This document shows positions 13,353 through 63,994 of a stretch of DNA of 64,000 nucleotides, one piece after another. Source of the DNA: Neocallimastix lanati (nom. inval.). Taxonomy: Eukaryota; Neocallimastigomycota; Neocallimastigomycetes; Neocallimastigales; Neocallimastigaceae. The position numbers were made by a program, and so were the translations under genes. The notes beneath the pieces are model-generated. The model had not been told where the DNA came from, did not search any database, and was given only the letters and a program-made list of their open reading frames with translations. Location of the stretch: NCBI GenBank assembly GCA_016946835.1, contig JACVTC010000045.1, forward strand, positions 1,086,501 to 1,150,500, given 5' to 3'. Every line of letters starts with the position of its first letter. The stretch's first letter is position 1.

Positions 13353-14114
13353 ATGAAATTAATTAACAGTTTAATTTTAATTATTTATTTATTTTTAAGT
13401 ATATTCTTGAAGAGTACACTTGCTTTATCATTGTCAATTATTGTACCTGCATATAATTCAGGTCCTTTCCTGGATAGATGTATAAAATCAATTTTAAATC
13501 AAACTTTTAAGGATTATGAATTAATTTTAGTTGATGATGCTTCAAGTGATAATTCATTAGATATATTAAAGAAATACAAAGAATCCGATATTCGAATTAA
13601 AATTATTCATTTGGAAATAAATAAAGGACCTGGTGGAGCAAGAAATATAGGAATGGACTATGCAGAGGGAGAATTCATAGGATTTGTTGATAGTGATGAT
13701 TACATTGATGAATCTTTTTTTGAAATATTAATGAAAAATTCATATGATAATGATATTATTGTTGGTCATATGGTTAAAGGTACAAATATTTCAGACAATT
13801 ATATAAAAGAAAAACCTTCTATATGGGCAGTTTGTGATAAAATTTGGAAAAAAAATTTTTTAAAAAAAAATAATATAAGATTTAATGAATTAATGAGACA
13901 TGGTGGAGAAGATATAGAATTTAATAATTTAGCTTATAAATTCAATCCAAAAATTTTAAAATTATCCGATGAAAGAATTTATTATTATTATAAGAGAAGA
14001 ACTGGATCTAATACAAATTATTCAAAGAAGCAATTAAGAAAATTTGAAAGAATGGCTAAAAAGGAAAATTTAATAAATAAAAAAAATAGAAAAAAATTAA
14101 AAAAATTAAAATAA
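13353..14114 (+). CDS. Secreted-type family 2 glycosyltransferase (GT-A fold), subtype 1
   Basis: 253 residues, single exon. Residues 1-24 form a signal peptide. The GT2 core starts at LSIIVPAYNSGPFLDRCIKS, with the nucleotide-binding D61-D62 (VDDASSDNS), the metal-binding DSDD at 113-116 and the catalytic-base motif E186-D187 (GGEDIEF). The segment IYYYYKRRTGS (209-219) is shared with the three sister genes. The closest known relatives are bacterial enzymes of capsule and lipooligosaccharide loci, which transfer a sugar from a nucleotide donor; the sugar cannot be told from sequence. A sequon at N145 and the signal peptide suggest action in the ER/Golgi lumen. The last 30 residues are strongly basic. 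It pairs most closely with 63233-63994. Bacterial origin is inferred. Confidence 0.9.
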   Translation: MKLINSLILIIYLFLSIFLKSTLALSLSIIVPAYNSGPFLDRCIKSILNQTFKDYELILVDDASSDNSLDILKKYKESDIRIKIIHLEINKGPGGARNIGMDYAEGEFIGFVDSDDYIDESFFEILMKNSYDNDIIVGHMVKGTNISDNYIKEKPSIWAVCDKIWKKNFLKKNNIRFNELMRHGGEDIEFNNLAYKFNPKILKLSDERIYYYYKRRTGSNTNYSKKQLRKFERMAKKENLINKKNRKKLKKLK

Positions 14115-15046
14115 AATATAATAAAATTTTAATTATTTATATGATAAAAAATTTTTGATATATTTATAAATGATTTCAATTATGTAAAAATTACAATTCT
14201 TGTAATAAAAAAAATAAATTTATTTCATTATTAAAAATTATATATTTATTTAAATAAATTTACTAATTAAAAACTATACAAATAATTATTTAATTTTAAT
14301 TATTAATGTTAAAATAATTTTATATAAAGAATTATATAAAAAATATTTATAAATTTTTATATAATCAAAACTTAATAAACCAATAAAATATTTATATTAT
14401 TTTATTAAATAATTTTATACTAATATTTCAAAAAAAAATTTTTTTCTATTGTATTATATATTTAAATTATTAATAAGGAACTATTTTTTATATAATTAAA
14501 AATGATATAAAACATTATTTTAATAATTCTATAACAACTAAATAGATTCATTATAAAATTTTTTCGTATTGTTAATTAAAATGTAATTATAATTTTTGAA
14601 ATAAATATTATATTTCTTATTATAGTATAGAATATAAATAAGAATTATTTAAAATAAAAGCTAAACTATAAAAAAAAATAAGTTAATTATTATTATAAAT
14701 ATTAATATTAAAAGTATTAACGTTTTCATTTTTATTCATAATTAATGAAATATAAATTTATTCTAAAATTTTAGAAATTATTAATATAAAAATTATTTTA
14801 TAAGTGTGATATTAATTTTTTTTAAATTACATACCAAAAATGAGGGCAACATGATTTAAAATCTTCTTATACTTGTTTGCATTTTACACTAGATTTCAAA
14901 TAAAATTTATGTATTAACTGAATTGGTCCAATTTAAAAATATCCAAGAGAAAATTGCAAATATTTTAATAAGAGATTTAAAATAAAATTTTTAAATAAAA
15001 ATTTAAATTTTTTGAATTTAATTGTTTCATTAAAATTATTAAAAAT
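14115..15046. other. A+T-rich spacer, no gene seen
   Basis: Spacer between the glycosyltransferase and element E. A patch at 14836-14960 is less A/T-biased (GAGGGCAACATGATTTAAAA...) but shows no frame or match that I can name. The rest is featureless. Confidence 0.5.
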
Positions 15047-15304
15047 TGTCAAAAATATTATGTTAAGAAACACTCAAATAAGTTATAATAAACACAATAA
15101 TAAATATATATGGATTAGTAGTTTTTAGAAAAATATTTTTTTATAACAGTATAAATTATTTTTATTCTCTTTTGTATAAGATATTATTTTTTTATAAAAT
15201 AATAATTCCATGATTTTTATACTTTTTATTTTAAATATTAATACAAGTAATTGGTCATTATTTATATTAAAGATAGATTAATTAAATTAATCATTATTTT
15301 GACA
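15047..15304 (-). repeat. Element E 3' LTR
   Basis: 258 bp with 8-bp inverted ends TGTCAAAA/TTTTGACA. On its internal side is the polypurine tract, read on the minus strand as TTTTTGGGGGAA. Confidence 0.9.
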
Positions 15305-15312
15305 TTCCCCCA

Positions 15313-15370
15313 AAAATCTAGCTTCAAAAAAAAAACTTTTTAAAAGATAAAAAAAATGAAGATAGATTTT
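15313..15370 (-). repeat. Hairpin before the element E polypurine tract
   Basis: Arms AAAATCTAGCTTC (15313-15325) and GAAGATAGATTTT (15358-15370) pair at 12 of 13 positions, with the loop between. Families A and B/C have hairpins of different sequence in the same place. Confidence 0.6.
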
Positions 15371-15377
15371 AATATAA

Positions 15378-18300
15378 TTAATTAATTATTTTCGTTAATA
15401 AGGTATTTCTAAATTTGTCCATTAAAGAGTTATTTAAGTATTTTGTAAAACCATCAGCAAGGTTGTCCTTTGATTTTATGTATTTTAATTTTATAATTTT
15501 CTTATTTACTAAATCCCTAATATGATGATACCTAATATCAATGTGTTTTGATTTCGGATTTATTGATTGATTTTCACTATTATATATTGTTGCTTTATTG
15601 TCTACGAAAATTGTTATTTCTTTGATATTTATGTTTAATTCGTTTAGTAAATTTTTGTACCATAATGAATGTTTTGCGTATTCACTTAAGCTATAATATT
15701 CAGCTTCTGTAGTTGAGGTGAAGACACAGTGCTGTAATTTGGAATACCAACTTGTTGGAGTGTCCCCCATTAACATGAGAAATCCAGAAGTTGATTTTCT
15801 TGTATTTGGATCGCCAGCAAAATCGGCATCTACAAATATTTTTAATTTCATTCCCTTTTCTATTTTAATTCCATAATTTTTTGTATATTTGAGATATCTA
15901 AAAATTTTTAAAACATTCATCCAATCTTCTAAGTTGGGATCTGTTGATTTTCTTGAAGCTCTACTAACAGCAAAAAGAATATCAGGACGGGTACAGATAG
16001 CTAAATATAGTAAACTTCCTATTGCACTTCGGTATTTTGTTTCATTGAATTTCTTGGTTCTTAGATTTGGATTTACTAATGGCATAAGATTTTTTACTGG
16101 TGTTAAGTTGTTAATATCGAATTTATTTAAAATGTCATTTATATATCTACCTTGATGTAAAATGTAACCATTTAAAGTTTTGGTAAATTTTATTCCAATT
16201 ACAAATTCAACATCCCCAATATCCTTTATATTGAACTTCCTTTGAATAGATTGTTTTACTTTATTTATTTCTTGATTTGTTCCTGCAATGAGAATGTCAT
16301 CAACGTATACTGAGAGAATACAAACTATTTCCTTCCCATTGTTTAATTTAATATAAACACATGGCTCACTTTTTATTCTATTGAAACCTATTTTTATCAA
16401 TTCTTCATTGAGTTTATCATTCCATTCTTTACCAGCTTGTTTTAAGCCGTAAAGAGCTTTGTGAAGTTCCCAAAAAGATTTTCCGTAAGATGGATGACCC
16501 TCTGGTGCTTTCATGTATATATGCTCATTTAATGGTGCATTTAAATAAGCTGAATTGATGTCTATTTGAACAATATTGAAATTTTTCTGAACCGCGATAA
16601 CTGTAATGATTCGAACTGTATCCTGTTTTAGTGTTGGTGCAAATGTTTCTTTGTAGTCGATACCGTACTGTTGAGTGTATCCTTTTGCAACTAATCTTGC
16701 CTTTCTTTTAATAACATTTCCGTTTGCATCTCTTTTATACTTAAATACCCATCGTGATGATATTACGTTGGATCCTGATGGTACTGTTTTAACAATTTTA
16801 TAAACATCAAGATTTTTCATGATTTCTAATTCTTTCTTGATTGCGTTTAGCCATTCTATTTTATCTTTAAATTTGAATATATCCTTGAAGTTATATGGTT
16901 CAATTAATGTATTTTCATTAATTTTCATGTCTGATTCATCTGTGTTGTTTATTTTTTTTCTTTTATTTGAATTAATTGTAAAATTGTTTAAATTCCTTTT
17001 TGAATTTTTAGGATGTTGATAGTTTTGATTTTTCTCTTTATTTGTGTTATATTTATTATTAATGTTGTTAATTTCTTGTTGGTTTTCTGTTGATATTTTG
17101 TTGTTATCATTTTCAGTCGTATTTTTAATTTCATTATTAATATTGATTGAATTATTATTGAAATTGTGAACATTTGAATTTAACAATTCCTGATTGAAAG
17201 TATTGTTACTATTATTGATTGAATTATTGTCAATAGTATTGTTGTTATTTTCATTATTATTATTTTTATTACTGTTATTAATGATAATTTTTTTATTATT
17301 ATTTTGATAATTGGGATAATATTTACGACTAATTCTATTTGTTTTAGAAGATTTATTTTTGGATTGATTTTTAATATTTTTATTCTGGTTAATATTTCTA
17401 TTCTGGTTAAAATTTGTTGTAGCATTTCTTTCATTGATAATATCTGTTATTTTATTATTATAATCATCAATTTCATTACGGTATCTAAGTCGGTTTAGAC
17501 AGTTGCTCTCCCTGAATTTGTTATTGGAATGAATACGATTTAAAAAGGAATTTCCTGGTTCATTTTCCATAAATTCTACAGTGCGAGATTGGATGATTTT
17601 ATTATTGATAACATCAAGAATTTTGTAAGTGGAAGGATGATCGCAATATCCAAGAAAAATACCAGGATGTGAATTATTGTCAAATTTTGATCTTAGTTCC
17701 CTTGGCACAAAGAAATAGACTCTACATCCGAATACTCTAAATGTATTGTAATCTACAGGCTTATTATAAAATACTTCAAATGGAATTTTATTTTGAATGC
17801 CTTGATGGGGAAGTCGATTATGAATATAGTTTGCAGTATCAACAGCAAACTCCCAAAAATCATGACTGAGTTTAGCGTCGTTAAGAAGTGATTTTGAAGA
17901 AGCAATGAGTATACCATTAAATCTTTCAGCCCTTCCATTTTGAGAAGGGTTATAAGGAACTGAAAACTGATGATGAATTCCATTTTCTTCACAGAAAATT
18001 TGAAATTTACTATTTTGAAATTCCTTCCCATTATCAGATCGAATTGCTTTGATATTTATATTTAATGAATTATAAATTTTATTATACCAAATGATAAATT
18101 TGTTAAATACATCATTTTTATTTTCAGTGAAGATGACCCATCCATATCTAGAGTAGTCATCTAAAATTGTAAGGAAATACTTATTGTTATTTATTGAAGG
18201 ATTAACAGGTCCTACAAGATCTAGATGTATTAATTCTAAAATTTGTTTAGTCTTATTGGTAGATGGTTTAAATGACTTATTTTTTAATTTGGAATTAATA

Positions 18301-19640
18301 CATACTGGGCATTTTAATTTTAGATTGATATTACTTAATTTATTTTTTATTTTAGAAATATCATAATGACCTAGGCGTCTATGCCAAAGGTCTATTACTT
18401 GTTGGTTATTTGATACTGTATAATTGATTTCGTTATGTTTTGTTGAATTTAAATTTGTTTGGTGTTTGGAAGTGAAAATTTGATATGTATTTTTATCATT
18501 AGATAAAGATTTATAAATTCTATTTCCATCATTATCATAAATTAATGCTTGTGGGGAGTTGTCATAATTATTGAATATTACTTTATAATTTTGAGAAATT
18601 AATTGATTGATTGAAATTAAGTTTCTCTTAATATATCGTGAATAATAAACATTTTTTAAAATGAATTTGTTGTTGTTAATGAATGCTACAAAATCGCCAC
18701 AAAATTCAGATAATACTTCTTTACCATTCGCTAGTAAAATTTTTGTTTTACATTTTTTAATGTTAGTAAGAAATTTTATGTCATTAATAGTACTGATTGA
18801 TGCACCTGAATCTAAAATCCAAACTATGAAGTTATTATTATATATATTACTATTTTCGTGATTTTTATTATTTATTCTTTCTAAACAATTAATTTCGATT
18901 GCAATGTCAGAGTTATAATCTTTAGAAAAATCTTCTAAGTAGTCGTCTTTATAGTTGTTGTAATTGCTTATTGAATATAAATGCTTGTTATTAATTTTAC
19001 TTTTATTATATTTTTTGTTCAATTTTCTTCGAATTTTCATTGATTTATTTTCATTGTTTTGATTCAAGAGCTTATTTCTTTTATACTTATAACATTCCTT
19101 TTTGTAGTGGCCGTATTTTCCACATAAGAAACATTTTCCATTTTTTCTTCTTTTTATTTTTAAATGCTTATTATTTTGTTTATTTTTGTTTTCAGTTTGT
19201 AAATTAAAAATATTTTTTGCGTTTTCTTCTTGAAGTTTTCTTTCCTTGATGTTCGAGAAAAGAATATCTGGTATTATTCTTTTTACGTAATTGCAACATT
19301 TTATCCATTCATTATTGTACTGGAAAACATTTATCCACCTTAGATTTTCAGGTAAGGCTCTATTCAGAATCCCTACCTTTACACTATCACTCATGTCTGT
19401 ATCGATGATTTCCAATTCATCGATCATATTTTGAAGTGTTGCAAGGAATATATGTATGTCATCATCTGTGGTAAATTTCAATCTGTTTAATTTATTTCGT
19501 AATAGCATTTTTTGATGCTCTTCTCCTAAAGTAAAGGAATCTTGAAGGAAGTTCCACATTTCGAAGGCGGTCTTACTATGGCTTTTTATTATTTCTTTCG
19601 TTTTCTTTCCCAGGCTATTATTAATTATCCATTTGACCAT
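15378..19640 (-). CDS. Element E polyprotein (gag end, protease, integrase, RT, RNase H)
   Basis: Long minus-strand frame of 1,420 codons. In order it shows the end of gag with a CCHC knuckle (CFLCGKYGHYKKEC), the aspartic protease site (WILDSGAS), the integrase zinc finger (WHRRLGH...CPVC) and the DDE core (HLDLVGP, RSDNGKEF, PSQNGRAERFNG). After an asparagine-rich linker come the copia reverse transcriptase (RWVFKYKRDANG, QIDINSAYLNA, SVYVDDILIAG) and RNase H (FVDADFAGDP, TEAEYYSLSEY). This is retroelement machinery and has no host role. It is preceded by the gag frame at 19645-19974. Confidence 0.93.
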   Translation of the reverse strand: MVKWIINNSLGKKTKEIIKSHSKTAFEMWNFLQDSFTLGEEHQKMLLRNKLNRLKFTTDDDIHIFLATLQNMIDELEIIDTDMSDSVKVGILNRALPENLRWINVFQYNNEWIKCCNYVKRIIPDILFSNIKERKLQEENAKNIFNLQTENKNKQNNKHLKIKRRKNGKCFLCGKYGHYKKECYKYKRNKLLNQNNENKSMKIRRKLNKKYNKSKINNKHLYSISNYNNYKDDYLEDFSKDYNSDIAIEINCLERINNKNHENSNIYNNNFIVWILDSGASISTINDIKFLTNIKKCKTKILLANGKEVLSEFCGDFVAFINNNKFILKNVYYSRYIKRNLISINQLISQNYKVIFNNYDNSPQALIYDNDGNRIYKSLSNDKNTYQIFTSKHQTNLNSTKHNEINYTVSNNQQVIDLWHRRLGHYDISKIKNKLSNINLKLKCPVCINSKLKNKSFKPSTNKTKQILELIHLDLVGPVNPSINNNKYFLTILDDYSRYGWVIFTENKNDVFNKFIIWYNKIYNSLNINIKAIRSDNGKEFQNSKFQIFCEENGIHHQFSVPYNPSQNGRAERFNGILIASSKSLLNDAKLSHDFWEFAVDTANYIHNRLPHQGIQNKIPFEVFYNKPVDYNTFRVFGCRVYFFVPRELRSKFDNNSHPGIFLGYCDHPSTYKILDVINNKIIQSRTVEFMENEPGNSFLNRIHSNNKFRESNCLNRLRYRNEIDDYNNKITDIINERNATTNFNQNRNINQNKNIKNQSKNKSSKTNRISRKYYPNYQNNNKKIIINNSNKNNNNENNNNTIDNNSINNSNNTFNQELLNSNVHNFNNNSININNEIKNTTENDNNKISTENQQEINNINNKYNTNKEKNQNYQHPKNSKRNLNNFTINSNKRKKINNTDESDMKINENTLIEPYNFKDIFKFKDKIEWLNAIKKELEIMKNLDVYKIVKTVPSGSNVISSRWVFKYKRDANGNVIKRKARLVAKGYTQQYGIDYKETFAPTLKQDTVRIITVIAVQKNFNIVQIDINSAYLNAPLNEHIYMKAPEGHPSYGKSFWELHKALYGLKQAGKEWNDKLNEELIKIGFNRIKSEPCVYIKLNNGKEIVCILSVYVDDILIAGTNQEINKVKQSIQRKFNIKDIGDVEFVIGIKFTKTLNGYILHQGRYINDILNKFDINNLTPVKNLMPLVNPNLRTKKFNETKYRSAIGSLLYLAICTRPDILFAVSRASRKSTDPNLEDWMNVLKIFRYLKYTKNYGIKIEKGMKLKIFVDADFAGDPNTRKSTSGFLMLMGDTPTSWYSKLQHCVFTSTTEAEYYSLSEYAKHSLWYKNLLNELNINIKEITIFVDNKATIYNSENQSINPKSKHIDIRYHHIRDLVNKKIIKLKYIKSKDNLADGFTKYLNNSLMDKFRNTLLTKIIN

Positions 19641-19644
19641 GATG

Positions 19645-19974
19645 TCATTCTTGATATCTGTTTGGGTTGTCCCAATATCGTAAATAAGAGTTATTAAATT
19701 TATCTTTAATGTACTTATCTAAATCTTCTTTAATATCCTTCTTTCTCAATTTTTTTACTTTTGGTAAACTAACGTATTCATCTAGATTATTGATGATTAA
19801 GAGGTCCAATACGTTAGTTTTCCAATCTTGGAAGTTTTCAACCGTTAATTCGGTAACATGATTGAAATTCTCGGAGTAATTGAAAGAGATTCCTTTAGTG
19901 AAGAAATTACTTTCTGATTCGGGAATTTCGATGATTTGGTTTCTGGAGTTACTTCTTGAATTGTTTCTGCTCAT
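19645..19974 (-). CDS. Element E gag, N-terminal part
   Basis: Minus-strand frame starting MSRNNSRSNSRNQ, with the block SFNYSENFNHVTELTVENFQ and KVKKLRKKDIKEDLD. The same blocks head the gag frames of elements B, C and D in this window, so it is the copia gag start. The pol-type frame follows immediately downstream. Confidence 0.85.
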   Translation of the reverse strand: MSRNNSRSNSRNQIIEIPESESNFFTKGISFNYSENFNHVTELTVENFQDWKTNVLDLLIINNLDEYVSLPKVKKLRKKDIKEDLDKYIKDKFNNSYLRYWDNPNRYQE

Positions 19975-20599
19975 TTTCTATTTTTTATTTTTACCTTCTT
20001 ATTTTAATTAAAAGTATTTATGTTTTATTATTTTCTTAATTTATTTTTTATTGCTTTTCTTTAATTTGTCTTTTATATATTTTTTATTTCTTTAGTTAGA
20101 TTTTATTTTATTAAATTAAATAATGTAAATTGTAATTAATTTTGATTGGTTCTATTTTTAGTGTCAATTTTTATTATTAATCTATTTATATAGATTTTTT
20201 AATGATTAATATTTAAAAAATTTAATTTAAAGATATTAATATACATTTTTTTTAATATTGATAGAGGAATTAGTATAATTTTATTATTACTGAAACCTAT
20301 CATTTTGATTCTTTTATTAAATAATGTGAATGTGATTATGTTACTATTCCTTTTTTAATTAAGAATAAATTATTTTTATTAATGTTTATTATAAAGTATT
20401 GTATATATTTATATTACGAACAATAGTATAAAGAGATTAATTTATTTATATTAAGTGTATTTAAAAATTTTCGTTATTGTTGTGAAAATGATTATATCAT
20501 TAATTGTTCATATTTAATATATTATTATAATTTCATTTTAATTAAAATCTTTATTTTAATTATTTATTATATAATTGAATTTTTTTATTATATTTTTCC

Positions 20600-20819: not shown

Positions 20820-21039
20820 ACCTTTTGTTTATTTTCAAATTCAATTATATTGATATTGGACTTCTTTGTACAATTATTTTAAATATTAAAGATTCCACTT
20901 TTATTTTAGTTTTATAATTTATAAATATTTATATATATATATAAATAATTAAAAATTAATATTTAATAATAAATATATAAATTTCAAATTTATTTAATGT
21001 TAAATTTTTATTTTAAAAAAAAATACTTAGCTTTTATAT

Positions 21040-24188: not shown

Positions 24189-24965
24189 ATGTCACTATTA
24201 AAATTTTTATTACTATTATTTATATTTATAAATAATTTTTTTTTAATAAAATGTTCATTACCAATTAAAATATCTGTTATTATACCTGTTTATAACACTG
24301 AACCTTACCTAAAAAGATCTATACAATCTGTGCTTGATCAGACATTAAAAGAAATAGAAATAATATGTATTGATGATGGTTCTACAGATAATTCATTAAA
24401 TATTTTAAATGAATTCAAAAAAATAGACAATAGGATTACAGTAATACATTTTAAAGAAAACAAAGGACCATCTATTTGTAGAAATACTGGTATTAATATA
24501 GCCAATGGTGAATTTATTGGTTTTACTGATAGTGATGATTATGTTGATAAACGATACTTTGAAAATTTATATAAGTACGGTAAAGATAAAGATATTGTAA
24601 TAGGTACTTTTGTAAGAAGTACAAATGATACTGAAGATTATATTCTTCATAAAAAATTAAAGAAAATACAAGGATATGTATGGAATAGTATTTTTAGGAG
24701 AAAATTTTTAGATGCCAACAATCTAAGATTTCCAACAAATATAAGATTTAAAGAAGATGAAATATTTAGAACAGAATGTTACAAACATGATCCTAAATTA
24801 TTTGAAACTCCGGATGAAGGAATATATTATTATTACAAACAACGAGAAGGAACATTATGTAATTATAAAGAACGATATATGAAAAATTTATCAAAAAAAA
24901 TTTATAAACAATCTAAAAGGAAAGAAAAAGCAATGAGAAGAAAAACATTAAATAAAAATCAATAA
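24189..24965 (+). CDS. Secreted-type family 2 glycosyltransferase, subtype 2
   Basis: 258 residues from the ATG at 24189. An in-frame ATG at 24120 would add 23 residues, but 24189 puts the hydrophobic signal peptide (MSLLKFLLLLFIFINNFFLIKCS) at the very N-terminus as in the sister genes. The GT2 core reads KISVIIPVYNTEPYLKRSIQS, with IDDGSTDNS, a DSDD metal site (114-117) and KED (188-190) as catalytic base region. GIYYYYKQREGT precedes a basic tail. A sequon at N146 lies where the other three have theirs. It is closest to 58074-58832 (both have DQTLKEIE and SIFRR.FL). Likely a luminal sugar transferase of bacterial descent; donor and acceptor unknown. Confidence 0.9.
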   Translation: MSLLKFLLLLFIFINNFFLIKCSLPIKISVIIPVYNTEPYLKRSIQSVLDQTLKEIEIICIDDGSTDNSLNILNEFKKIDNRITVIHFKENKGPSICRNTGINIANGEFIGFTDSDDYVDKRYFENLYKYGKDKDIVIGTFVRSTNDTEDYILHKKLKKIQGYVWNSIFRRKFLDANNLRFPTNIRFKEDEIFRTECYKHDPKLFETPDEGIYYYYKQREGTLCNYKERYMKNLSKKIYKQSKRKEKAMRRKTLNKNQ

Positions 24966-37653: not shown

Positions 37654-38691
37654 TTAAAAAACAAATTTCTTTTTTGGTGGTAATTTAATTAAATCTCCAA
37701 ATATTTTATCTTGTTGAATTGGATTCCAATTACATGTTCCGCTTGCTGAACTAAAAGTCATTTCACCAAATTTAATAGTACCATCATTAAGAATGTAAAA
37801 ATCTACTCTAACATGTGGAAAGCCTTCAGCTAATTTTTCAGCTAATTCAATTAATAAATTTAAATTTTTTGGTTTAGGAACTATGTCTTTATTTAATAGA
37901 AATGAATAAATATAATCTAATTTATTCCAATTTAAGTCATAAAAAGATATTTTTAAATTTGTTTTTCTATCATTAATAACAAGTATACTTTCCGCTTTAC
38001 CGTTAAAACAAAAAACTTTATAATCATAAACATCTCCATTAATATTTTCAATATATTTTTCTGCTATTATTTTTGGTTTAATATTCAAATACTGAAATTC
38101 AAATCCGTATTTAAAAGCGAAATTAATTTTCAGCCATTCATTCATTTTTTTTCTAGCTTCTTCAATATTTAATTCTGATTTATTTTTAACGATTATATTA
38201 AATTGACAACCATGATTTGCTTTTAGTACAAATTGATTAGGTAATAAATCAAAATTTATTTCATCAAATGAATCCCAAACCCCTAATAATGGTATTAGGT
38301 ATTTTTCACCAATTTTTTCTTTCACCCAATTTCTTACTAAATATTTATCTGTTAATTGCGTTTTTAAAGAACTATTATCATATAATTTCATCCATTGTAT
38401 TTTTTCATTGTACGTCTTTGGATTCTCGATGTCAAAATTATTATTTTTCATTTTTATTTTATACCATTTAATTAAATCTTTCTTACATACTTTAAATATA
38501 TGATTTTTACATTTTTCATTGCATATTAATTTATAATTATAATCATTATTATTATAATATTCCTTAGTACTATTATTTTTTTGTGAATTATACCGTTTAA
38601 TTAATTTTTCACATTTGGAAATCGTACTTTCAGTGGAACAAATTAATTTTACAATAATTAAAATAAAAATAAAAACACTTTTATTTCTCAT
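37654..38691 (-). CDS. TupA-type ATP-grasp glycan enzyme with signal peptide
   Basis: 345 residues from the ATG at 38691. An ATG 14 codons upstream is possible, but 38691 puts the signal peptide MRNKSVFIFILIIVKLICS first. After a Cys/Asn-rich linker comes the TupA-like ATP-grasp domain: NPKTYNEKIQWMKLYD, TDKYLVRNWVKEKIG, IPLLGVWDSFDEINFDLLPNQFVLKANHG, WLKINFAFKYG, IIAEKYIEN, DYKVFCFNGK, FPHVRVDFYILNDG, IKFGEMTFSSASG. The family name comes from teichuronopeptide synthesis in bacteria. Members occur in many bacterial capsule and exopolysaccharide loci and are thought to ligate groups to glycans using ATP. The signal peptide is unlike the cytosolic bacterial relatives and would place it in the secretory lumen, where ATP must be imported. 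Bacterial descent is inferred. Confidence 0.88.
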   Translation of the reverse strand: MRNKSVFIFILIIVKLICSTESTISKCEKLIKRYNSQKNNSTKEYYNNNDYNYKLICNEKCKNHIFKVCKKDLIKWYKIKMKNNNFDIENPKTYNEKIQWMKLYDNSSLKTQLTDKYLVRNWVKEKIGEKYLIPLLGVWDSFDEINFDLLPNQFVLKANHGCQFNIIVKNKSELNIEEARKKMNEWLKINFAFKYGFEFQYLNIKPKIIAEKYIENINGDVYDYKVFCFNGKAESILVINDRKTNLKISFYDLNWNKLDYIYSFLLNKDIVPKPKNLNLLIELAEKLAEGFPHVRVDFYILNDGTIKFGEMTFSSASGTCNWNPIQQDKIFGDLIKLPPKKKFVF

Positions 38692-39683: not shown

Positions 39684-40540
39684 TTAGCCATTAACTTTTA
39701 TCCATTGAAAATGGATTCCTAAAATTGAACTAATTATACCAAATAATGCAAGATAAATTGAATCAATTCTATAAATACCTAGGGATGAAATTGGTTGGAA
39801 GAAGTCACACAAATATTGTATTAATATTAAATAATGTTTTTTCTGTTTATCCAGAAGATCATCTTGTTGACCGATCTTTTTCTTTTCGTATTTATTTTCT
39901 TTTTCATTACTATATTGAATATTTTTAATGATATCAATTTTTTCTATTGTTTTTTCCAATTTATAAATTTCATTCAAGATACCAGAAGTGATACCAATTA
40001 ACCAAAATATTTGTGCATTCAAGGAAAGAAGATTAATATTATCATAATTCATAATACCGGATTTATGAATCCATATCATCATATCGAAAGTAAGGTAAAT
40101 TGAATAACTTAAATTGCGCAAAAGTATGCAATATTTTGAAAAATCATCTTTTAGAGTTAACGTCTTATAAAAAATATTAAGATGTTCTAATGGTCTTCCA
40201 ATACGAAAAACTTCACATTATAATTTATATTTTTAAAATTATGTTTTAACAATAAAATTAATTTAATTTAAATTTAAAATTTAATTTATTTTATTATTTT
40301 ACATTTGCGTGATAATTGTATATTCTTAATAATATTTCTAAACCATGCATTGATCTCTTCCTTATTATAATATTTTACACACAAAGCAAGAATAAACTTA
40401 AATGTATATTGTAATGTTCTGTATATAATTTTTTATTAAAATTTTCTTAATTTAGGAGGTATAAATAGAATACTAATTAATATATATATTTACCTATTAA
40501 TTTTATCTCGACCGACAGTAGTATTTATGTATTTAAAAAA
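39684..40540 (-). CDS. PEX11: PEX11 peroxisomal membrane-elongation protein (three visible exons)
   Basis: Exons on the minus strand are 40540-40494, 40418-40303 and 40210-39684, with GT...AG introns between. The visible protein runs FFKYINTTVGRDKINR, TLQYTFKFILALC, SRK then FFRIGRPLEHLNIFYKTL, RNLSYSIYLTFDMMIWIHKSG, IFWLIGITSGILNEIYKLEK, a charged stretch, and a C-terminal pair of hydrophobic helices (DSIYLALFGIISSILGIHFQW). This is the Pex11 family layout: the GRDK..RTLQY N-terminus and the (L/F)GKPLEHL-type motif. Pex11 bends and elongates peroxisome membranes before fission. The start codon lies in a further upstream exon not placed here; a 3' splice site (AATAG) precedes 40540. It looks intact and of ordinary eukaryotic descent, unlike the glycan genes around it. 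Confidence 0.85.
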
Positions 40541-41595: not shown

Positions 41596-43482
41596 ATGTA
41601 TATTTATATTTTGTTCAACTTGTTTCTGTTATTACTAACAATCAGTAAAGCGTCTAATGAAATATGTAATAAATTAGTATTAGATAGTGAAATAAAAAAT
41701 AATGAATTAAATTATTTTCAAGAAAATAATCATATCACTAATAACCAAGATTTAGAAAAACTTAATTATAATAATTTAACTATAAACTCAACAGTAGATT
41801 ATAAATATAAAAAAAATGATATATTATATAATAATTTGAAAAATGTAATAGACCAATATTCTATTATTTCATTTGATATATTTGATACCTTACTGATTCG
41901 CCCTTACGTTGAACCAAAAGATTTATTTGTACACTTAGAAAATCTAAATAATGCTACTGGATTTGCAAAATCACGAATAGAAGCTGAAAGAAATGCAAGA
42001 AAAAAAACCTTATATGGAAAAGAAGAAATTACTTTTGACGAAATTTATCAACAAATAGAACCAAAATATAAATGGTTGAAGGAGAGAGAATTGGAGCTTG
42101 AATATAAAAGTTTGAAAGCTCGATCTTTCTTAAAGGATGTATATAACTATGCTATTCTTAAAAATAAAAGTGTTATAATAATTTCGGATATGTATTTATC
42201 CAAAAAGTTTTTAGAAAAAGTTTTGAAAAAATGTGGTTATGAAAATTACGAACATTTATTTATTTCATCAGAGTATGGAAAAACTAAAGATTCTGGATTA
42301 TTATTTAATGTAATTTTAAAAGAACTTAATATTTCTCCAAAGGATATCCTACACATAGGTGATAATTTAAGATCTGATATTAGTAAATCAAGAGAAATAG
42401 GTATTAATTCGTTTCATATCCCAAAAGTAGTGGAATTTTTATTTGAGACAGATACTAGAATAAAGAAATTTTATATGAATCATAATAATAATCTTGGAGC
42501 TTCAATCCTTTTAGGATTGTTAGCTTCCCATAATGAAAATGCGTATAAAAATTATTGGTATGAATTTGGTTATAAATATGCTGGTCCTGTAATTTTTGGT
42601 TACATGCAATGGCTCAATGAAAAAATTAGAAAGGACGAAATCAAAAAAGTAATATTTGTTGCTCGAGATGGATACACTTTAGAAAAAGTTTTCAATCTAA
42701 TAAAAATATCTAATTCAAAAACTTATTATATCTATTTCCCAAGAAAAATTGCTAGAAAATGTTTATATGGTCAACCTAAAGAAGTTAAAAATTCAATAAA
42801 GGAATATTTGCTTTATTTAAATCAATTCGAATTAAATGACAATAAATTAGGAATAGTTGATTCTAGAACATTATACTATTCCTCTCAAAGAGGTTTAATT
42901 GCTTTATTTCCTGAAAAAAAAATCAAAGGTTATTATTGGTATGTTGGAGATGAGAAATATGAAAATTTGAACTTTGAATCTTATCAAAAAGAGCATAAAC
43001 AAAGAATTGGTCATATTATTGAACTATTTATGACTGCACCCACACCTCCAATTGACACCATAAAAGATGGAATACCCGTATTTAAAGAAGCAAATAATGC
43101 TGAGATTGCTCGAATAAAATTATATCCTGAATTGTCTAATGGTGCCATAGATTTTACTAAGGATTATTTAAAAAGTTTTAATACTTTAAAAAGTTTTTTC
43201 ACAAGTGATATGTTAACTGAATGGGTAAATACATTCCTATATAGCCCTACTGAAATTGATAAAAATATGTTTTTCACTATTGAGCAAGCTCTCGATGATA
43301 ATCACAATAACTATTTTAAATTATTTAATCATTGGTATTACAAAAATGATGAAATTAAAAATAGTAATATGGATAAATTTCGAACTAGAAGAATGATTAA
43401 AAAAAATAAAAAAGAATTAAGAATTAAGAAAAAAAAGGAAAATAAAGAAAAAAAAAGAAGATTATATGAAGTCAAAAAATAA
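41596..43482 (+). CDS. Secreted-type HAD-superfamily protein of polysaccharide loci (COG5610-like)
   Basis: 628 residues, single exon. Signal peptide 1-20 (MYIYILFNLFLLLLTISKAS). Residues 88-275 form a HAD-type domain: motif I SFDIFDTLL (D94, D97, T98), motif II IISDMYLS (S197, D198), motif III lysine in EYGKTKDSG (K229) and motif IV HIGDNLRSD (G255, D256). A C-terminal half of about 300 residues with IFVARDGYTLEKVF and YYWYVGDEKY is typical of large HAD proteins in bacterial capsule and lipooligosaccharide clusters, often next to GT2 genes. The catalytic set is complete, so phosphatase or phosphotransferase activity is plausible; the substrate is unknown. Sequons lie in the linker (NLT, NST). 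The tail after about 595 is almost all K, R and E. Bacterial descent is inferred. Confidence 0.85.
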   Translation: MYIYILFNLFLLLLTISKASNEICNKLVLDSEIKNNELNYFQENNHITNNQDLEKLNYNNLTINSTVDYKYKKNDILYNNLKNVIDQYSIISFDIFDTLLIRPYVEPKDLFVHLENLNNATGFAKSRIEAERNARKKTLYGKEEITFDEIYQQIEPKYKWLKERELELEYKSLKARSFLKDVYNYAILKNKSVIIISDMYLSKKFLEKVLKKCGYENYEHLFISSEYGKTKDSGLLFNVILKELNISPKDILHIGDNLRSDISKSREIGINSFHIPKVVEFLFETDTRIKKFYMNHNNNLGASILLGLLASHNENAYKNYWYEFGYKYAGPVIFGYMQWLNEKIRKDEIKKVIFVARDGYTLEKVFNLIKISNSKTYYIYFPRKIARKCLYGQPKEVKNSIKEYLLYLNQFELNDNKLGIVDSRTLYYSSQRGLIALFPEKKIKGYYWYVGDEKYENLNFESYQKEHKQRIGHIIELFMTAPTPPIDTIKDGIPVFKEANNAEIARIKLYPELSNGAIDFTKDYLKSFNTLKSFFTSDMLTEWVNTFLYSPTEIDKNMFFTIEQALDDNHNNYFKLFNHWYYKNDEIKNSNMDKFRTRRMIKKNKKELRIKKKKENKEKKRRLYEVKK

Positions 43483-46414: not shown

Positions 46415-46423
46415 TTCCCCCAC

Positions 46424-51661: not shown

Positions 51662-51663
<2 letters not shown>

Positions 51664-51720: not shown

Positions 51721-51726
<6 letters not shown>

Positions 51727-56273: not shown

Positions 56274-56300
56274 TGTTCAAAGTTACAAAAATCCATATCG

Positions 56301-58073: not shown

Positions 58074-58832
58074 ATGTTTAAAAGTTTAATAAAATTAGTA
58101 TTTATTGTAATCCAGGTTGTTAATATATTTTGTAAAAATGAAATTAAAATATCAGTTGTTATGCCAGTATATAACACTGAAAATTATTTAAAAAGAAGTA
58201 TTCAGTCAATATTAGATCAAACATTGAAAGAAATTGAATTAATATGTGTTGATGATGCATCAACTGATAATTCTTTAAGTATATTAGAAGAATTTAAAGA
58301 AAAGGATAGCAGAGTTAAAGTCTTTCATTTTAATAATAATCAAGGTCCAAGTATAGCAAGAAATAAAGGAATTGAAATGTCTACTGGAGAATTTATCGGT
58401 TTTATGGATGATGATGATTATATGGATAAAAGATTTTACGAAAATTCATATAAATATTCAAAAAACTTTGATATTGTAGTTGGTAATTTTGTATTAGGAA
58501 CAAATTTATCATCATATTATTTACCTTTTCCAAATTGGGATCGTCGTGGATCAGTATTTGATTCTATTTTTAGAAGAGAATTTTTAAATACGCATAATAT
58601 AAGATTTCCAGTTAATAAGAGAACTGCTGAGGATATAAAGTTCAGATATGATTGTTATGAATATAATCCTAGAATATTTGAAATTCCTGATGAAGGAATA
58701 TATTATTATTATAAACAGAGAGAAGGTTCTTTAATGAATTTTTCTAAAAAATATTTAAAAAATTATAATCGAAAAGCAAAAATAAAAGCTAAAAATAAGA
58801 TAAAAAATCTAAGAAAACAGAGAAAAGCGTAA
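58074..58832 (+). CDS. Secreted-type family 2 glycosyltransferase, subtype 2
   Basis: 252 residues, single exon, signal peptide 1-20 (MFKSLIKLVFIVIQVVNIFC). The core is KISVVMPVYNTENYLKRSIQS, VDDASTDNS, a DDDD metal site at 112-115 (MDDDDYMD, in place of DSDD) and E186-D187 (AEDIKF). GIYYYYKQREGS is followed by a tail of 30 residues rich in K and R. A sequon at N144 matches the sister genes. It shares DQTLKEIELIC and SIFRREFL with 24189-24965, its closest relative here. It transfers a sugar from a nucleotide donor, probably in the ER/Golgi lumen; the specificity is unknown. It lies 1 kb from the divergent-facing mutase gene's end. Confidence 0.9.
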   Translation: MFKSLIKLVFIVIQVVNIFCKNEIKISVVMPVYNTENYLKRSIQSILDQTLKEIELICVDDASTDNSLSILEEFKEKDSRVKVFHFNNNQGPSIARNKGIEMSTGEFIGFMDDDDYMDKRFYENSYKYSKNFDIVVGNFVLGTNLSSYYLPFPNWDRRGSVFDSIFRREFLNTHNIRFPVNKRTAEDIKFRYDCYEYNPRIFEIPDEGIYYYYKQREGSLMNFSKKYLKNYNRKAKIKAKNKIKNLRKQRKA

Positions 58833-59890
58833 AAAAACGAAAAAATATAAAACGAAGTAATAAAAAATAATTTTTTTATTAAAAAAAATATTCATTAGTT
58901 TAAATTATAATTGATTTATTTTTTATTTTTTATTTTTTATTTTTTTTCTTATTTTTTTATTATTTAATTATTTTATTATTTATTTATCTATTTATTAAAA
59001 TTTTAAGAAATGAAGTTTTGCGAAATGCCACACACTCGTTTTAGATAAATAAGTATGGATTATATTAAGTATACTTATATATAAGTAAATTAAAAATTAT
59101 AGTTTCCCCGACACTTTTTATTTAATTCATGAATATTAAATAATATTATAAATAAATAAAAAATTAATCAATAATTTTTGGTTATAAATATTTTCTATTT
59201 ATATATTTATAAATAACATATTTAATAGAATACGTTTAAATTATTAAAGTTATAAATTTTAAATAAATTAAAAGAATTTTAATATAATTAATACAATAAA
59301 ATCTAAATAAATATTAAATATTAAATATTATCTTTTTTTTTATTTTAATATTTACAGTATATGAATATTTTATTTAAATAATATAAAATTAATAAAATAA
59401 AATAAAAATTCCACTATTATTATTAAATAAATATTATATCATATATATTAAGTAAAAATGTAAATAAGTAAAAATTAATATTTAATATTAATAATAAATA
59501 TTTCTAATTATCATGTTCAAAAATATTTTAATATTTTTTTATTATAATATTAAATATAATAAATTAAAATAAAATTAATATAGGTATAAAATATAAAAAC
59601 TTAAATATTCATTTCTCTTTAAATTTTATTAAAAAATAAAATAACTTTCTATTATCCTTTAAGAAAATTAAAGTTTCAATTAATTTAAAATATATAAATA
59701 ATTATTTTAATATTAATATTTTAATTTATTTAATAAATATTTATTAAATTATTTCATTTAGAAGTACAAATACAAAGTTTCTTATCAAATTTTAAATTAT
59801 AATTTTGAAATATACACTTTAAATTTGTTTTTAGTGCAAAATAATTAATAATTATTATTAAATTTAAATTAAACATCGGTTATTAATATA
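58833..59890. other. Convergent spacer between glycosyltransferase and mutase genes
   Basis: 3' ends of two genes meet here. The small less-biased patch at about 59010-59040 (GAAGTTTTGCGAAATGCCACACACTCG) is not recognised. Otherwise A+T-rich. Confidence 0.5.
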
Positions 59891-61147
59891 CTAATATTTA
59901 TCCCAGTACTTAAAAACAGAATCAATAATATCTTTCATATCGTAATATTTATATTCTGCCAGTCTTCCTCCAAAAATAACATTTTTTTCTTTATCAGCCA
60001 ATTCTTTATATTTTTTGTATAAATTATTATTTTTTTCATCATTGATTGGATAATATCCCTCTTTAGTTTCATCCCATTCCTCACTATACTCTTTACTAAT
60101 CACTGTTTTATTTAATTGATGAATTCGTTCATTATATGGCTCAAAATGTTTATGTTCAATTATTCTGGTATACTCAACATTTTTATCAGGCTGATTAATA
60201 ACTGCCGTTCCTTGGTAATTTGCTACTTCTAATATTTCAGTATCCCATCTTACAGTTCTATATTGCAATTTTCCATATTTGTATCCAAAATATTCATCTA
60301 TTTTTCCCGTATATACAATTTTATCAGCTATTTTCTCATACATTTCTCTATTAGTATTATAATCAACACCTGTGATAACCTCTGTATCTTCTAGTAATTT
60401 ATCTATCATAGCATTATAACATCCTTCAGGAATACCTTGATATCTATCATTAAAATAATTTCCATTAAAAGTAAATCGTGTTGGTAACCTTTTAATGATA
60501 AAGGAAGGTAAATTTTTACAATCTCTTCCCCATTGTTTTTCTGTATATCCTTTAATTAATTTTTCATAAATATCTCTACCAACTAAAGATAACGCTTGTT
60601 CCTCTAAATTATGAACTACACCTGTATATTTATCCTTGTTAATTCTGGCTTTTGCTTCTTTTGGTGTTGAAACACCCCATAATTGGTTAAATGTATACAT
60701 ATTAAAGGGTAGGCTGTATAGTTTATCACCAGCTCGTGACATTGTTTGTAGCATATAAGGATTAAAGTGTGTGATATTATTTACAAAGTTCCATACTCTT
60801 ATATTATCAGTGTGAAATATATGTGGACCGTATTTATGTACATAAATTCCTTCTACTTTTTCACAGTATAAATTACCACCAACAACATCACGTTTCTCCA
60901 CTATAAGAGTACTTTTTCCTTTTTTTTTAGCTAGATAATTAAATGTAGAACCATAAAGGCCTGAACCAACAATAAGATAATCATAGTGTTTCAATTTTGA
61001 TGAGTTTACTCTAAATTTACTCTTAAGTAGATAATAAAGTATTAAAATAACTATAATAATACTAAAATTATAGAGTCTTTTAAACTTTATTTTTTTTATA
61101 ACTGTAAAATTTGATTTATTTACTTTTAAATTTACTTTTTGTTCCAT
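59891..61147 (-). CDS. glf: Bacterial-type UDP-galactopyranose mutase with N-terminal membrane anchor
   Basis: 418 residues. A basic N-terminus (KKIKFKR) is followed by one hydrophobic segment (about 27-42), then a complete mutase: FAD-binding YLIVGSGLYGS (58-67), EKRDVVGGN, GPHIFHT (107-113), GYTEKQWG (200-207), PTRFTFNGNYFNDRYQGIP (R224 is the expected phosphate-binding arginine), QYRTVRWDTE (second arginine region, 295-304) and the C-terminal GGRLAEYKYYDM. It interconverts UDP-galactopyranose and UDP-galactofuranose with reduced FAD. The catalytic part is about 365 residues, the bacterial length, whereas fungal and other eukaryotic mutases are about 500. The anchor with positive charges before it predicts a luminal catalytic domain. 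It looks intact. Transfer from bacteria is inferred from length and motifs. Confidence 0.93.
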   Translation of the reverse strand: MEQKVNLKVNKSNFTVIKKIKFKRLYNFSIIIVILILYYLLKSKFRVNSSKLKHYDYLIVGSGLYGSTFNYLAKKKGKSTLIVEKRDVVGGNLYCEKVEGIYVHKYGPHIFHTDNIRVWNFVNNITHFNPYMLQTMSRAGDKLYSLPFNMYTFNQLWGVSTPKEAKARINKDKYTGVVHNLEEQALSLVGRDIYEKLIKGYTEKQWGRDCKNLPSFIIKRLPTRFTFNGNYFNDRYQGIPEGCYNAMIDKLLEDTEVITGVDYNTNREMYEKIADKIVYTGKIDEYFGYKYGKLQYRTVRWDTEILEVANYQGTAVINQPDKNVEYTRIIEHKHFEPYNERIHQLNKTVISKEYSEEWDETKEGYYPINDEKNNNLYKKYKELADKEKNVIFGGRLAEYKYYDMKDIIDSVFKYWDKY

Positions 61148-63232
61148 TAGTAAATGATGTATTAAAAATTAAATTTCTTTAAACAAATATATATAATTAA
61201 AAATTTTTTATTGACTTAAAAGATAATGTGATTAGGATTACATATATAAGTTTTTTATTATATATATATTATTTATTATTAAAATAAATATATTAATATT
61301 TAATATATTGATATATCAATATTTAGAGAAAATTATTAGTTCATATCAAATTTATAATATAACAAAATAATATACTATTTTAATAAAAGGAATTAAAGGT
61401 TAGGAATAATTTCTAAGATTATATATTTTAAATTGTAATTCCAATATTTTCTTTGGTATTCCAAAAAAAAAGATTTTTCATAAATTAGTGAAATACATTT
61501 TATTTTTAGTTAATGGATTATATTGATATAAATAACTTAATTAGTAGTCAAAAACAAATTAATATTCAAGTTTTCATAAAATTTTAAATTATAAAATTAA
61601 AGTTTAACGTAATATGAAATTACAGACTAAAATAGAGAACCTCTTATTAATTATGGTTAAATCATGAAATGATTAATATTAAAATAGTTTTATTTCAATG
61701 TGAATAGTTATTTATAATATTAGTACCAAAAAAATGACTTATGGTATTTTACAGGAAATAATAAAATAAATCTTAATTTATATTTTATATTATTAGTCTA
61801 ATATAACTTTTATTTATTCAAGTTAAGTTGAGGGAAAGTTGGAAATATACATATTAAAGTTATAAATAATATTATATAATATTATATATCTTGTGTAAAT
61901 TGGGTAAGGAATATTATTAACAAACATAATATAAAATTAACTGTAAATAATATATTAATGTATAATATTAAGTTACATTCTGACTTTATAGTTCTATATA
62001 TTAAGATATATTCTTTTTTAAAATTTTTAAGATATGAATTTTATTTTAATAATTATTAATCTCTAAAATTAATTCTTATAAAGGTTTAAGGATTAAAAGA
62101 TATTTATTAATGAATATTATTTATTTATAAAATTATTTATAAAATTATTTATAAAATCGAATAAATATTCAATGATTTTATCATATTATAAAGTTAATAT
62201 TTTATTTATGTAAGTTATTTTTTTAAATATATTTGTAAAATCTTAAAAATTTAAAACTTTATAATATAGTTAATGTTATTTTTGTTATATTTAAGTATAA
62301 TAAATATATTTTTTCTTTTATAATTCCTATTTTTTTTGTTTTAATTTTTATATAAAAAAATTTATTTGTGATTTACAATAAAACTAAATATTTATTATAA
62401 ATATATAATAAATTGTAAATTTTTTTTGAGATAAAATTTTTATTTGGATTTAATTATAAATTTTATTGAATAAAAAATAAAAATAATTCTTCTAGATTAA
62501 AATAATTAAAAATATTATGTATGCATTTCAAATATCTTTTTGAAAATTAAAAAATTTAAAATTTCAATAGAGTTTCTATAGAATTATATATAAAACAAAT
62601 AATTCGGTAAATATAAAATAATACAATTTATTTAATTTTCGTTCTACAATAGGTAGAAACATTTATATTAGTAACGACAAAATATTGTTGGTAATCACAA
62701 TAAATAAAAGGAATTCATTGATATATATAAGAATCTAATTATTCTTATGATGAAATCACCTTATTAACCATGGATTTGTTAGATTATTAAAGAAGTTAAT
62801 TTGACATTATAGCAATAAAATGAAGAAAATTTAAAATCATCACTAAAAATGATTTAAAGGAATTCTTTCAGTCTAATTAATTTTTTAATTTATAAAATTA
62901 AAAACAATAATATTTTAATAATATTTTTTGTTTCATTTAAATAAATTTTTCGTTAATCGCTATTTAAAATTCTAAATAAAAATTTATAATAGATATAAAT
63001 AAGAAAAATTAGCAAAAAATATTTTTTTATGAATACATTAAATTAAATTTATTTATTTTTTAATAAAAATTTTAATATATTAATTAATTAAAAATATAAT
63101 TATTTAATAAAAATTTTAAGATTTTTATAACTTTATTTATTTTATTTTTAAATTAAAATATAAAAAAAATATATAAATATTTAATAAAAATTCTATTTAA
63201 AAATAAAAAATTTTTATTAATAAATAAAAAAA
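61148..63232. other. Long A+T-rich spacer, no gene seen
   Basis: Two kilobases upstream of both the mutase (minus) and the fourth glycosyltransferase (plus). It should hold both promoters. A direct triplet of ATTTATAAAATT occurs near 62128-62158. No coding or RNA feature found. Confidence 0.5.
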
Positions 63233-63994
63233 ATGAATTTAATTTTTGGAGTATTTTTAATTACTTTTTTATTTCTAGAAATATTTATAACGAATATTAA
63301 TGCCTTACCATTATCCATTGTTGTGCCTGTATTTAATACAGCATCATACTTAGACAGGTGTATAAATTCAATATTGAATCAAACTTTTAAAGATTTTGAA
63401 TTAATATGTATTGACGATGGATCAACAGATAACTCCATGGAAATATTAGAAAAGTATAGAATAACCGATAATAGAGTTAAAGTTATTCATTTTGAACAAA
63501 ATAAAGGTGCCAGTGCTGCAAGAAATGAAGGAATCGAAAATGCAAAAGGGGAATTTATTGGATTTGTTGATAGTGATGATTATATTGATGAAAGATTTTA
63601 TGAAAATCTACTAAAAAAATCAAATGGTTATGATATTGTGGTTGGTCAACTTGTTTTAAGTACTAATATTTCTAAATTTTATTATAAAGAAGAATATAAA
63701 GATCATTGGTCAATTTATGATTCAATTTGGAAAAAAGAGTTCTTAAATGAAAATAATATCAGATATGATGAAACATTGAAAATTGGAAATGATTATGCCT
63801 TTAATGTACTTGCTTATAAATATAATCCAAGAATTATGAACTTACCCGATGAAGGAATATATTATTATTACAAGAGAAGAACAGGTTCTCTCAGAAATTT
63901 TTCAAAAAAATCTTTAAAAAAATTTAATAAAATTGCACAAAAAAAATTTAAAATCAAAAAAAAGCATTTAAAGAAAAGAAAAGAATATTTTTAA
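63233..63994 (+). CDS. Secreted-type family 2 glycosyltransferase, subtype 1
   Basis: 253 residues, single exon, complete just before the window ends. Signal peptide 1-24. The core is LSIVVPVFNTASYLDRCINS, IDDGSTDNS, the DSDD metal site at 113-116 (VDSDDYIDE) and, where the others have Glu-Asp, N186-D187 (IGNDYAF). The aspartate, the expected catalytic base, is kept. GIYYYYKRRTGS precedes a tail of about 30 residues rich in K and R. A sequon at N145 matches the other three. It is closest to 13353-14114 (shared SILNQTFKD, IWKK.FL, YKRRTGS). Likely a luminal transferase of bacterial descent; specificity unknown. Confidence 0.9.
   Translation: MNLIFGVFLITFLFLEIFITNINALPLSIVVPVFNTASYLDRCINSILNQTFKDFELICIDDGSTDNSMEILEKYRITDNRVKVIHFEQNKGASAARNEGIENAKGEFIGFVDSDDYIDERFYENLLKKSNGYDIVVGQLVLSTNISKFYYKEEYKDHWSIYDSIWKKEFLNENNIRYDETLKIGNDYAFNVLAYKYNPRIMNLPDEGIYYYYKRRTGSLRNFSKKSLKKFNKIAQKKFKIKKKHLKKRKEYF

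What the first reader, a model, noticed from the sequence alone, without database searches (positions are those of the whole stretch)
13353..63994. A bacterial-type glycan assembly set re-addressed to the secretory pathway of a eukaryote
Seen: seven intact genes of families typical of bacterial capsule or lipooligosaccharide loci lie within 51 kb (four GT2, a TupA ATP-grasp, a COG5610-like HAD, a short UDP-galactopyranose mutase), and every one begins with a signal peptide or signal anchor. Known: the bacterial relatives of these enzymes work in the cytosol on the inner membrane face. Inference: the set was acquired from bacteria, gained ER targeting, and now builds or decorates a surface glycan, perhaps one with galactofuranose, inside the ER/Golgi. 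I know of no description of such a whole set in the lumen.
Basis: partly seen in the sequence, partly recalled or inferred. Interest (0 to 1): 0.87.

Follow-up and report, generated by a model that had tools for sequence, protein, structure and literature searches.

The report
Capsule-type sugar enzymes, fungal secretory pathway
A gut fungus carries a clustered, multiplied set of bacterial capsule-type sugar-assembly enzymes, including one that resembles a bacterial enzyme adding ribose to glycans, and the seven in this stretch all carry apparent signals for entry into the secretory pathway, which hints at an unusual surface glycan.

The parts
13353..14114 (+). GT2a, leader-bearing GT2 glycosyltransferase, 253 aa; leader MKLINSLILIIYLFLSIFLKSTLALS (13353-13430); VDDAS, DSDD, EDIEF motifs; basic tail
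24189..24965 (+). GT2b, leader-bearing GT2, 258 aa; leader MSLLKFLLLLFIFINNFFLIKCS (24189-24257); IDDGS, DSDD, EDEIF
37654..38691 (-). TupA-like ATP-grasp, 345 aa; leader about 22 aa (38626-38691), cysteine-bearing N-terminal extension (Cys 27, 57, 61, 69), ATP-grasp fold in the model
41596..43482 (+). Dual-domain ribofuranosyltransferase homologue (HAD phosphatase + gPRT), 628 aa; leader MYIYILFNLFLLLLTISKAS (41596-41655)
58074..58832 (+). GT2c, leader-bearing GT2, 252 aa; leader MFKSLIKLVFIVIQVVNIFC (58074-58133); VDDAS, DDDD, EDIKF
59891..61147 (-). Prokaryotic-class UDP-galactopyranose mutase, 418 aa, with N-terminal hydrophobic anchor segment
61022..61123 (-). Codons 9-42 of UGM (anchor segment), missing from published gene models as an intron
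63233..63994 (+). GT2d, leader-bearing GT2, 253 aa; leader MNLIFGVFLITFLFLEIFITNINALP (63233-63310); IDDGS, DSDD, NDYAF
8529..8977 (-). Broken remnant of a MurB-like gene (MurB C-terminal domain in pieces); the other places of this family found in the genome also lie near GT2 loci

Best explanation
In Neocallimastix lanati, and by homology in other anaerobic gut fungi, genes of bacterial capsule or O-antigen type were acquired from more than one bacterial source, multiplied, and now act inside the ER/Golgi. Proposed working: cytosolic UDP-glucose dehydrogenase, GalE and a UDP-xylose-synthase-like epimerase (my label; no leader in the one copy of each that was read) make UDP-GlcA, UDP-Gal and perhaps UDP-Xyl; these enter the lumen; membrane-anchored UGM makes UDP-Galf in place; leader-bearing GT2 enzymes add GlcA, Galf or related sugars to a protein-, lipid- or wall-bound acceptor; the RibfT transfers ribose-5-phosphate from PRPP and its HAD domain removes the phosphate; the TupA ATP-grasp enzyme amidates a carboxylate such as GlcA. 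Result: an acidic, furanose-bearing, capsule-like surface or secreted glycan. Shown: genes, families, leaders (by hydropathy and comparison), fold matches of the RibfT and TupA models, clustering. Inferred: lumenal location, PRPP and ATP supply there, all activities, the product.
Against: [quoted passage not shown] No PRPP synthetase exon found lies near the set. Five published UGM models lack the anchor. Of the other 12 fungal-clade RibfT rows only 5 show a leader; P0005 and P0012 do not, the other five are cut or start late. Two pocket serines of Bcs3 (S678, S707) are Ala and Pro here. No window protein ends in KDEL or HDEL, so retention is unexplained. Some copies are broken: second RibfT has one stop, TupA on C90 is a fragment and a broken copy, a GT2 on C379 is in two pieces. 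No expression, localisation or glycan data. Binomial figures treat loci as independent although blocks may have been duplicated together.
Confidence: 0.5

Rival explanations
1. Insertion-tolerant hot spots: transferred bacterial genes pile up in retroelement-rich regions and have no joint pathway; the leaders are individual secretion signals.
For: The region is full of copia-like elements, broken copies occur (MurB remnant; RibfT copy with a stop; TupA fragment joined to a gag-like frame), and the nearest bacterial kin differ between RibfT and UGM.
Against: UGD genes, which match in pieces as interrupted genes do and lie in 16 places, also cluster with the GT2s: 8 of 16 within 25 kb, while other nitroreductases (0 of 8) and PRPP synthetase exons (0 of 8) do not; the gathered families are those of one kind of pathway.
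Confidence: 0.22
2. The enzymes act in the cytosol: leaders are wrong starts, introns, or reverse anchors that leave the catalytic domain in the cytosol, as in the bacterial relatives.
For: UGM gene models without the anchor; RibfT rows P0005 (Piromyces sp. E2) and P0012 (unnamed) without a leader; donors PRPP and ATP are cytosolic; 21% of chance frames reach 2.5.
Against: 26 of 26 GT2 N-termini read have a hydrophobic run; UGM anchors with unlike sequences in 113 of 113 extended homologues, a charged N-side then a hydrophobic run, which suggests N-in/C-lumen (inference); between the two own UGM copies the anchor differs by one whole codon and has no stop (34 codons only, weak); Cys-bearing TupA extension.
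Confidence: 0.18
3. Secreted or degenerate proteins without transferase work, for example lectin-like GT2 derivatives acting outside the cell.
For: No ER-retrieval signal in the seven, basic tails of net charge 6 or more in 21 of 23, some broken copies.
Against: DSDD-type motif in all 23 rows (it was part of the filter), first DD motif in 21 of 23, ED/ND motif in 20 of 23; RibfT pocket and HAD residues largely kept; UGM matches over the whole chain.
Confidence: 0.1

Closest known systems
Bcs3 CrpP-CriT of Haemophilus influenzae b, 7SHG of Thermobacillus composti, Cj1432 middle and C-terminal domains
   Same: Order HAD phosphatase then PRPP transferase, fold over both domains, R/D/R of the PRPP pocket, single-Asp DIFDT motif (Bcs3 and 7SHG; Cj1432 from passages only)
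   Different: Eukaryotic host; N-terminal leader; no fused CroT or GT4 domain; E818 is Asp, S678 Ala, S707 Pro by the alignment
Campylobacter jejuni HS:2 capsule pathway (PMC12096443, passages)
   Same: Same list of activities: Ribf transfer and dephosphorylation, pyranose-furanose mutase, UDP-GlcA synthesis, ATP-dependent amidoligase, GTs
   Different: Bacterial cytosol and export against predicted ER/Golgi lumen; the Campylobacter amidoligase was not compared here (its paper is not held)
Prokaryotic UDP-galactopyranose mutase (Glf, TIGR00031)
   Same: Whole catalytic chain, residues 55-411 to 2-356 of 1I8T (E. coli, recalled), 426 bits
   Different: Extra N-terminus of about 50 residues with anchor; the 40 bacterial plasmid matches listed of 318 begin at query residue 43-58
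Aspergillus-type Galf pathway (cytosolic eukaryotic UGM plus UDP-Galf transporter; recalled)
   Same: Would supply UDP-Galf in the Golgi
   Different: Mutase of the prokaryotic class and predicted inside the lumen; beyond the 13 strong matches no other chain named UGM among the 60 of 67 PDB rows shown at E up to 10
TupA of teichuronopeptide synthesis (function recalled) and ATP-grasp ligases
   Same: PF14305 over the cut-off, ATP-grasp fold
   Different: Leader and Cys-bearing extension

Membership tests
PRPP-dependent dual-domain ribofuranosyltransferase | HAD phosphatase domain with nucleophile Asp in DIFDT | tested here: met
   D94 aligned with the Bcs3 and 7SHG motif; PF00702 31.2 bits
PRPP-dependent dual-domain ribofuranosyltransferase | gPRT domain fold behind the HAD domain | tested here: met
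PRPP-dependent dual-domain ribofuranosyltransferase | PRPP pocket residues (Bcs3 S678 R679 D680 S707 R708 E818) | tested here: inconclusive
   R, D, R kept as R357, D358, R383; E818 is D422; S678 and S707 changed
PRPP-dependent dual-domain ribofuranosyltransferase | Cytoplasmic location | tested here: inconclusive
   Leader in the window protein; sister rows have a membrane segment; no experiment
PRPP-dependent dual-domain ribofuranosyltransferase | Transfer of Ribf-5-P and dephosphorylation | not testable with these tools
   needs enzyme assay
Prokaryotic UDP-galactopyranose mutase | TIGR00031 cut-off and whole GLF domain | tested here: met
   362.8 against 303.75 bits; PF03275 1-203/203
Eukaryotic-class UGM | Sequence match to eukaryotic UGM | tested here: inconclusive
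   13 UGM sequences match at 225-426 bits; none of the other 47 rows shown is named UGM; 7 rows not shown; source organisms not given
TupA-like ATP-grasp | PF14305 and ATP-grasp fold | tested here: met
GT2 | PF00535 with DD, DxD and ED-type motifs | tested here: met
   4 of 4 window genes; the last motif reads ND in one
C. jejuni HS:2-type capsule pathway | Same fused domains (GT4-HAD-gPRT; GalfNAc transferase-amidoligase) | tested here: not met
   RibfT shows no further Pfam domain and TupA stands alone; so 'works like', not 'is'

The most novel reading that the evidence does not exclude
A eukaryote performs PRPP-dependent O-ribofuranosylation inside its secretory pathway and builds a bacterial-capsule-like glycan (glucuronamide, galactofuranose, ribofuranose) there; this implies an unknown route of PRPP into the lumen, a mutase making UDP-Galf in place, and an unusual surface for anaerobic gut fungi.
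Probability: 0.4. Interest if true: 0.92.

Novelty: new variant of a known kind. Interest (0 to 1): 0.78.

Why it matters
[quoted passage not shown] the UGM found here argues otherwise. A ribofuranosyltransferase with a leader would challenge the statement that these enzymes must be cytoplasmic (PMC11127046, passage) and would imply lumenal PRPP. Such a glycan could matter for the fungal wall, rumen microbe interactions and glycosylation of secreted cellulosome proteins (inference), and the set makes it testable.

Tried and rejected
HAD as a free phosphatase: rejected, the second domain aligns with a PRPP transferase. One transfer of a ready operon: not supported, since RibfT and UGM have different nearest bacteria; bacterial locus L017 shows that such a cluster exists, but its UGM lies far from the fungal one. 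Leaders as a by-product of AT-rich DNA: not excluded for one gene, unlikely for all. 'Fungal GT2s are shorter than bacterial ones': dropped, since fungal bodies are 225-278 aa and a Priestia GT2 has 240, though the other four bacterial rows have 287-356. PRPP synthetase beside the set: none of 8 exon places. NCBIfam on the window TupA: no family; on three bacterial TupA kin: nothing useful. Pfam on two pieces of a giant neighbouring ORF and on small frames of the window: nothing except MurB_C in two frames. Co-linkage of HAD and UGM in bacteria: PF03275 found in 3 of 6 genomes searched, on the same contig as the HAD only in G001. P0008-like HAD in 4 of 385 genomes of that class, the starting genome included.

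Rows dropped or chosen: RibfT tree 84 rows, drawn from 120 listed hits plus L017-L019 and the window; short rows such as P0003 and P0011 left out. The leader count among other bacterial rows covers P0020-P0065 only (39 rows, one without motif, most of them unnamed). TupA tree: 108 of 119 rows with the motif plus 3 own loci; the Cys count uses 14 rows picked from the fungal clade; of three more printed P0128 has 3, P0132 4, P0207 0, the last being cut. I labelled P0257 as fungal; it has no anchor and falls outside the clade, so I do not count it as fungal. GT2: my motif filter missed L003 and the shorter frames L044 and L045, read (L044 has the same leader as L043); L062 was left out of the GT2 tree. 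GT2 count of 32: of 39 matches I left out C526 and C586 (same scores as C390 copies), a second C379 piece and four weak matches; two of the 32 are pieces, and frames on C114 and C113 are longer (289-804 aa) and unread at the N-terminus. TupA: six matches merged to four loci, the C90 one being a fragment and a broken copy. RibfT: a third weak match of 42 residues on C224 left out. UGD: 61 matches merged by me to 16 loci, one a single exon. Only one of the two long nitroreductase copies was read.
Full report
WHAT IS THERE. The window is bases 1086501-1150500 of contig C390 in a 199-Mb genome; the contig has 1,240,031 bases. All seven genes are open and in the families stated. Between them lie copia-like retroelement frames (by reading) and a PEX11 exon, so the surroundings are eukaryotic.

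LEADERS. Hydropathy scores of 2.77-3.35 in 7 of 7 stand against 21% of 237 chance frames at 2.5 or more. Comparison is the better test. 26 of 26 fungal GT2 N-termini read carry a hydrophobic run before the GT-A motif (10-residue mean 1.96-3.47); five bacterial GT2s reach -9 (too short to score) to 1.71. For UGM, 113 of 120 listed homologues have an extension of 25 or more residues and all 113 contain a hydrophobic run, with unlike sequences between groups; the seven without are five Neocallimastix gene models, one partial sequence (P0255) and P0257. Those five models join codon 8 to codon 43, removing in the window 102 nt that begin GT and end AG. Between the two own UGM copies this stretch differs by one whole codon and has no stop, 8 of 15 changes being at third positions: in keeping with coding, but weak. 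For TupA, 14 of 14 fungal-clade rows picked have 3-6 Cys before the core against 1 of 78 other rows with 3 or more in the last 90 residues; counted behind the leader, 13 of the 14 have 3 or more and one has 2.

TREES. RibfT: the fungal clade (13 rows, support 89) is sister to P0004, P0006, P0008, P0009, P0010 (two named Alphaproteobacteria MAG, the rest unnamed), the join supported at 100; beyond them come other rows, those named being bacteria (SH-aLRT only, short search). The five sister rows all have an N-terminal membrane-like segment of 2.98-3.43; among the next seven, three pass 2.4, three of the rest start like leaders by eye, and one (P0059) does not; of 39 other rows P0020-P0065 none passes 2.2 (one had no motif). 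So the address may be older than the transfer. UGM: 14 anchored fungal rows at 100/100, next to a Prevotella UGM (99/98; 213 of 372 identical), within the seven bacterial rows used. TupA: the six own or named fungal rows form one clade (97) apart from five named bacterial rows; the root is arbitrary and backbone support low. GT2: 24 fungal rows in one clade (99/98) against seven bacterial rows, so one leader-bearing ancestor that multiplied is the simplest view; the bacterial sampling is thin.

CLUSTERING. 13 of the 32 GT2 loci counted are on this one contig. All 10 TupA (4), UGM (2), RibfT (2) and long-nitroreductase (2) loci lie within 40 kb of a GT2, against 0.77% of the genome; 9 of 10 within 25 kb, 2 of 10 within 10 kb (places). 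Controls: 0 of 8 other nitroreductase places, 0 of 8 PRPP synthetase exon places. UGD: 16 loci, 8 within 25 kb of a GT2; MurB-like: 3 of 3 places within 25 kb after leaving out the C526 copy; PF01370 epimerases: 3 of 15 within 40 kb. P values assume independence, which block duplications break. On C379, GT2, TupA, UGD and RibfT recur within about 35 kb. In N. 'constans' TupA (P0127) and a RibfT cluster (P0002) share the longest-contig length 1,778,038, and two UGMs share 1,848,005: linkage inferred from lengths only.

HOW IT MAY WORK. GalE (398.7 bits, cut-off 262.3) and an epimerase about 7 kb from the second UGM (no NCBIfam cut-off passed) have no leader, nor has the UGD start read, so donors would be made in the cytosol while the mutase, transferases, RibfT and ATP-grasp enzyme are predicted lumenal. 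A long nitroreductase with its own N-terminal hydrophobic segment stands 1.2 kb from the second UGM, head to head; bacterial UGM needs reduced FAD (recalled), so it could be its reductant source: a guess. The parts match those of the C. jejuni HS:2 capsule (PMC12096443, passages): 'works like', not 'is', as the domain fusions differ.

KNOWN OR NEW. Searches of the held library found no account of this set among what I saw: ribofuranosyl, HAD, PRPP; 3 papers; Neocallimastigomycota, HGT, glycosyltransferase; 11; Neocallimastix lanati; 14; anaerobic fungi, UGM; 3; ribofuranosyltransferase, eukaryot; 1; Neocallimastigomycota, HGT, signal peptide; 15, ten listed; fungal scaffoldin glycosylation; 8; Neocallimastigomycetes, MurB; 0; anaerobic fungi, galactofuranose; 2; ribofuranose, Golgi, lumen, PRPP; 0. 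I saw passages of PMC8092308 (plus section 9), PMC12096443, PMC11127046, PMC10299916 (plus section 9), PMC11291939, PMC12484212, PMC8561657 and PMC12341934; all others as listings only. PMC11291939 (passages) reports signal peptides in 33% of transferred genes in early fungi against 7.7% of the proteome, and carbohydrate-active transfers to Neocallimastigomycota including glycosyltransferases; PMC12341934 (passages) counts 194 glycosyltransferases in a Neocallimastix. So bacterial genes with leaders and many GTs are not new in themselves; this combination and the RibfT are what looks new.

VERDICT. Observation confirmed; interpretation partly supported and extended. Lumenal function is the best reading at about 0.5.

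Noticed in passing
window 8529-8977 (-): Broken MurB-like remnant (peptidoglycan-precursor reductase family); a 370-aa open frame of the same family at C90:1001862 lies about 1 kb from a GT2 piece and 2 kb from a UGD exon.
   Followed up: partly
G000:C390:929020-930603 (L024/L025): Nitroreductase-domain protein of 527 aa with N-terminal hydrophobic segment and coiled-coil-like stretch, head to head with the second UGM; both long-frame copies in the genome are on this contig near GT2 genes, the other one unread.
   Followed up: partly
G000:C390:976460-994648 (L029-L031): Open frame of 6062 aa, Cys-rich, with Ser/Thr-rich stretch and hydrophobic C-terminus; scaffoldin-like by eye only, no Pfam match in the two pieces tested; similar-looking frames at 947937-956036 and a GT2 at 965655 between.
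   Followed up: partly
P0004, P0006, P0008, P0009, P0010; P0027, P0035, P0038, P0040: Ribofuranosyltransferase homologues (three named Alphaproteobacteria) with N-terminal membrane segments or leader-like starts, itself odd for a PRPP-using enzyme.
   Followed up: partly
genome-wide: UDP-glucose dehydrogenase domain in about 16 loci that match in several pieces, half of them within 25 kb of GT2 genes.
   Followed up: partly
GT2 C-termini: Basic tails, net charge 6-18 in the last 40 residues in 21 of 23; L050 instead ends in a hydrophobic segment.
   Followed up: no
L012 (C90:817340-820945), P0124: TupA fragment in one open frame with a retroelement gag-like stretch.
   Followed up: no
P0007: Piromyces finnis RibfT homologue annotated behind leucine-rich repeats and a leader.
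   Followed up: no
window 39684-40217 (-): PEX11 exon in a fungal group that is usually said to lack peroxisomes (recalled).
   Followed up: no
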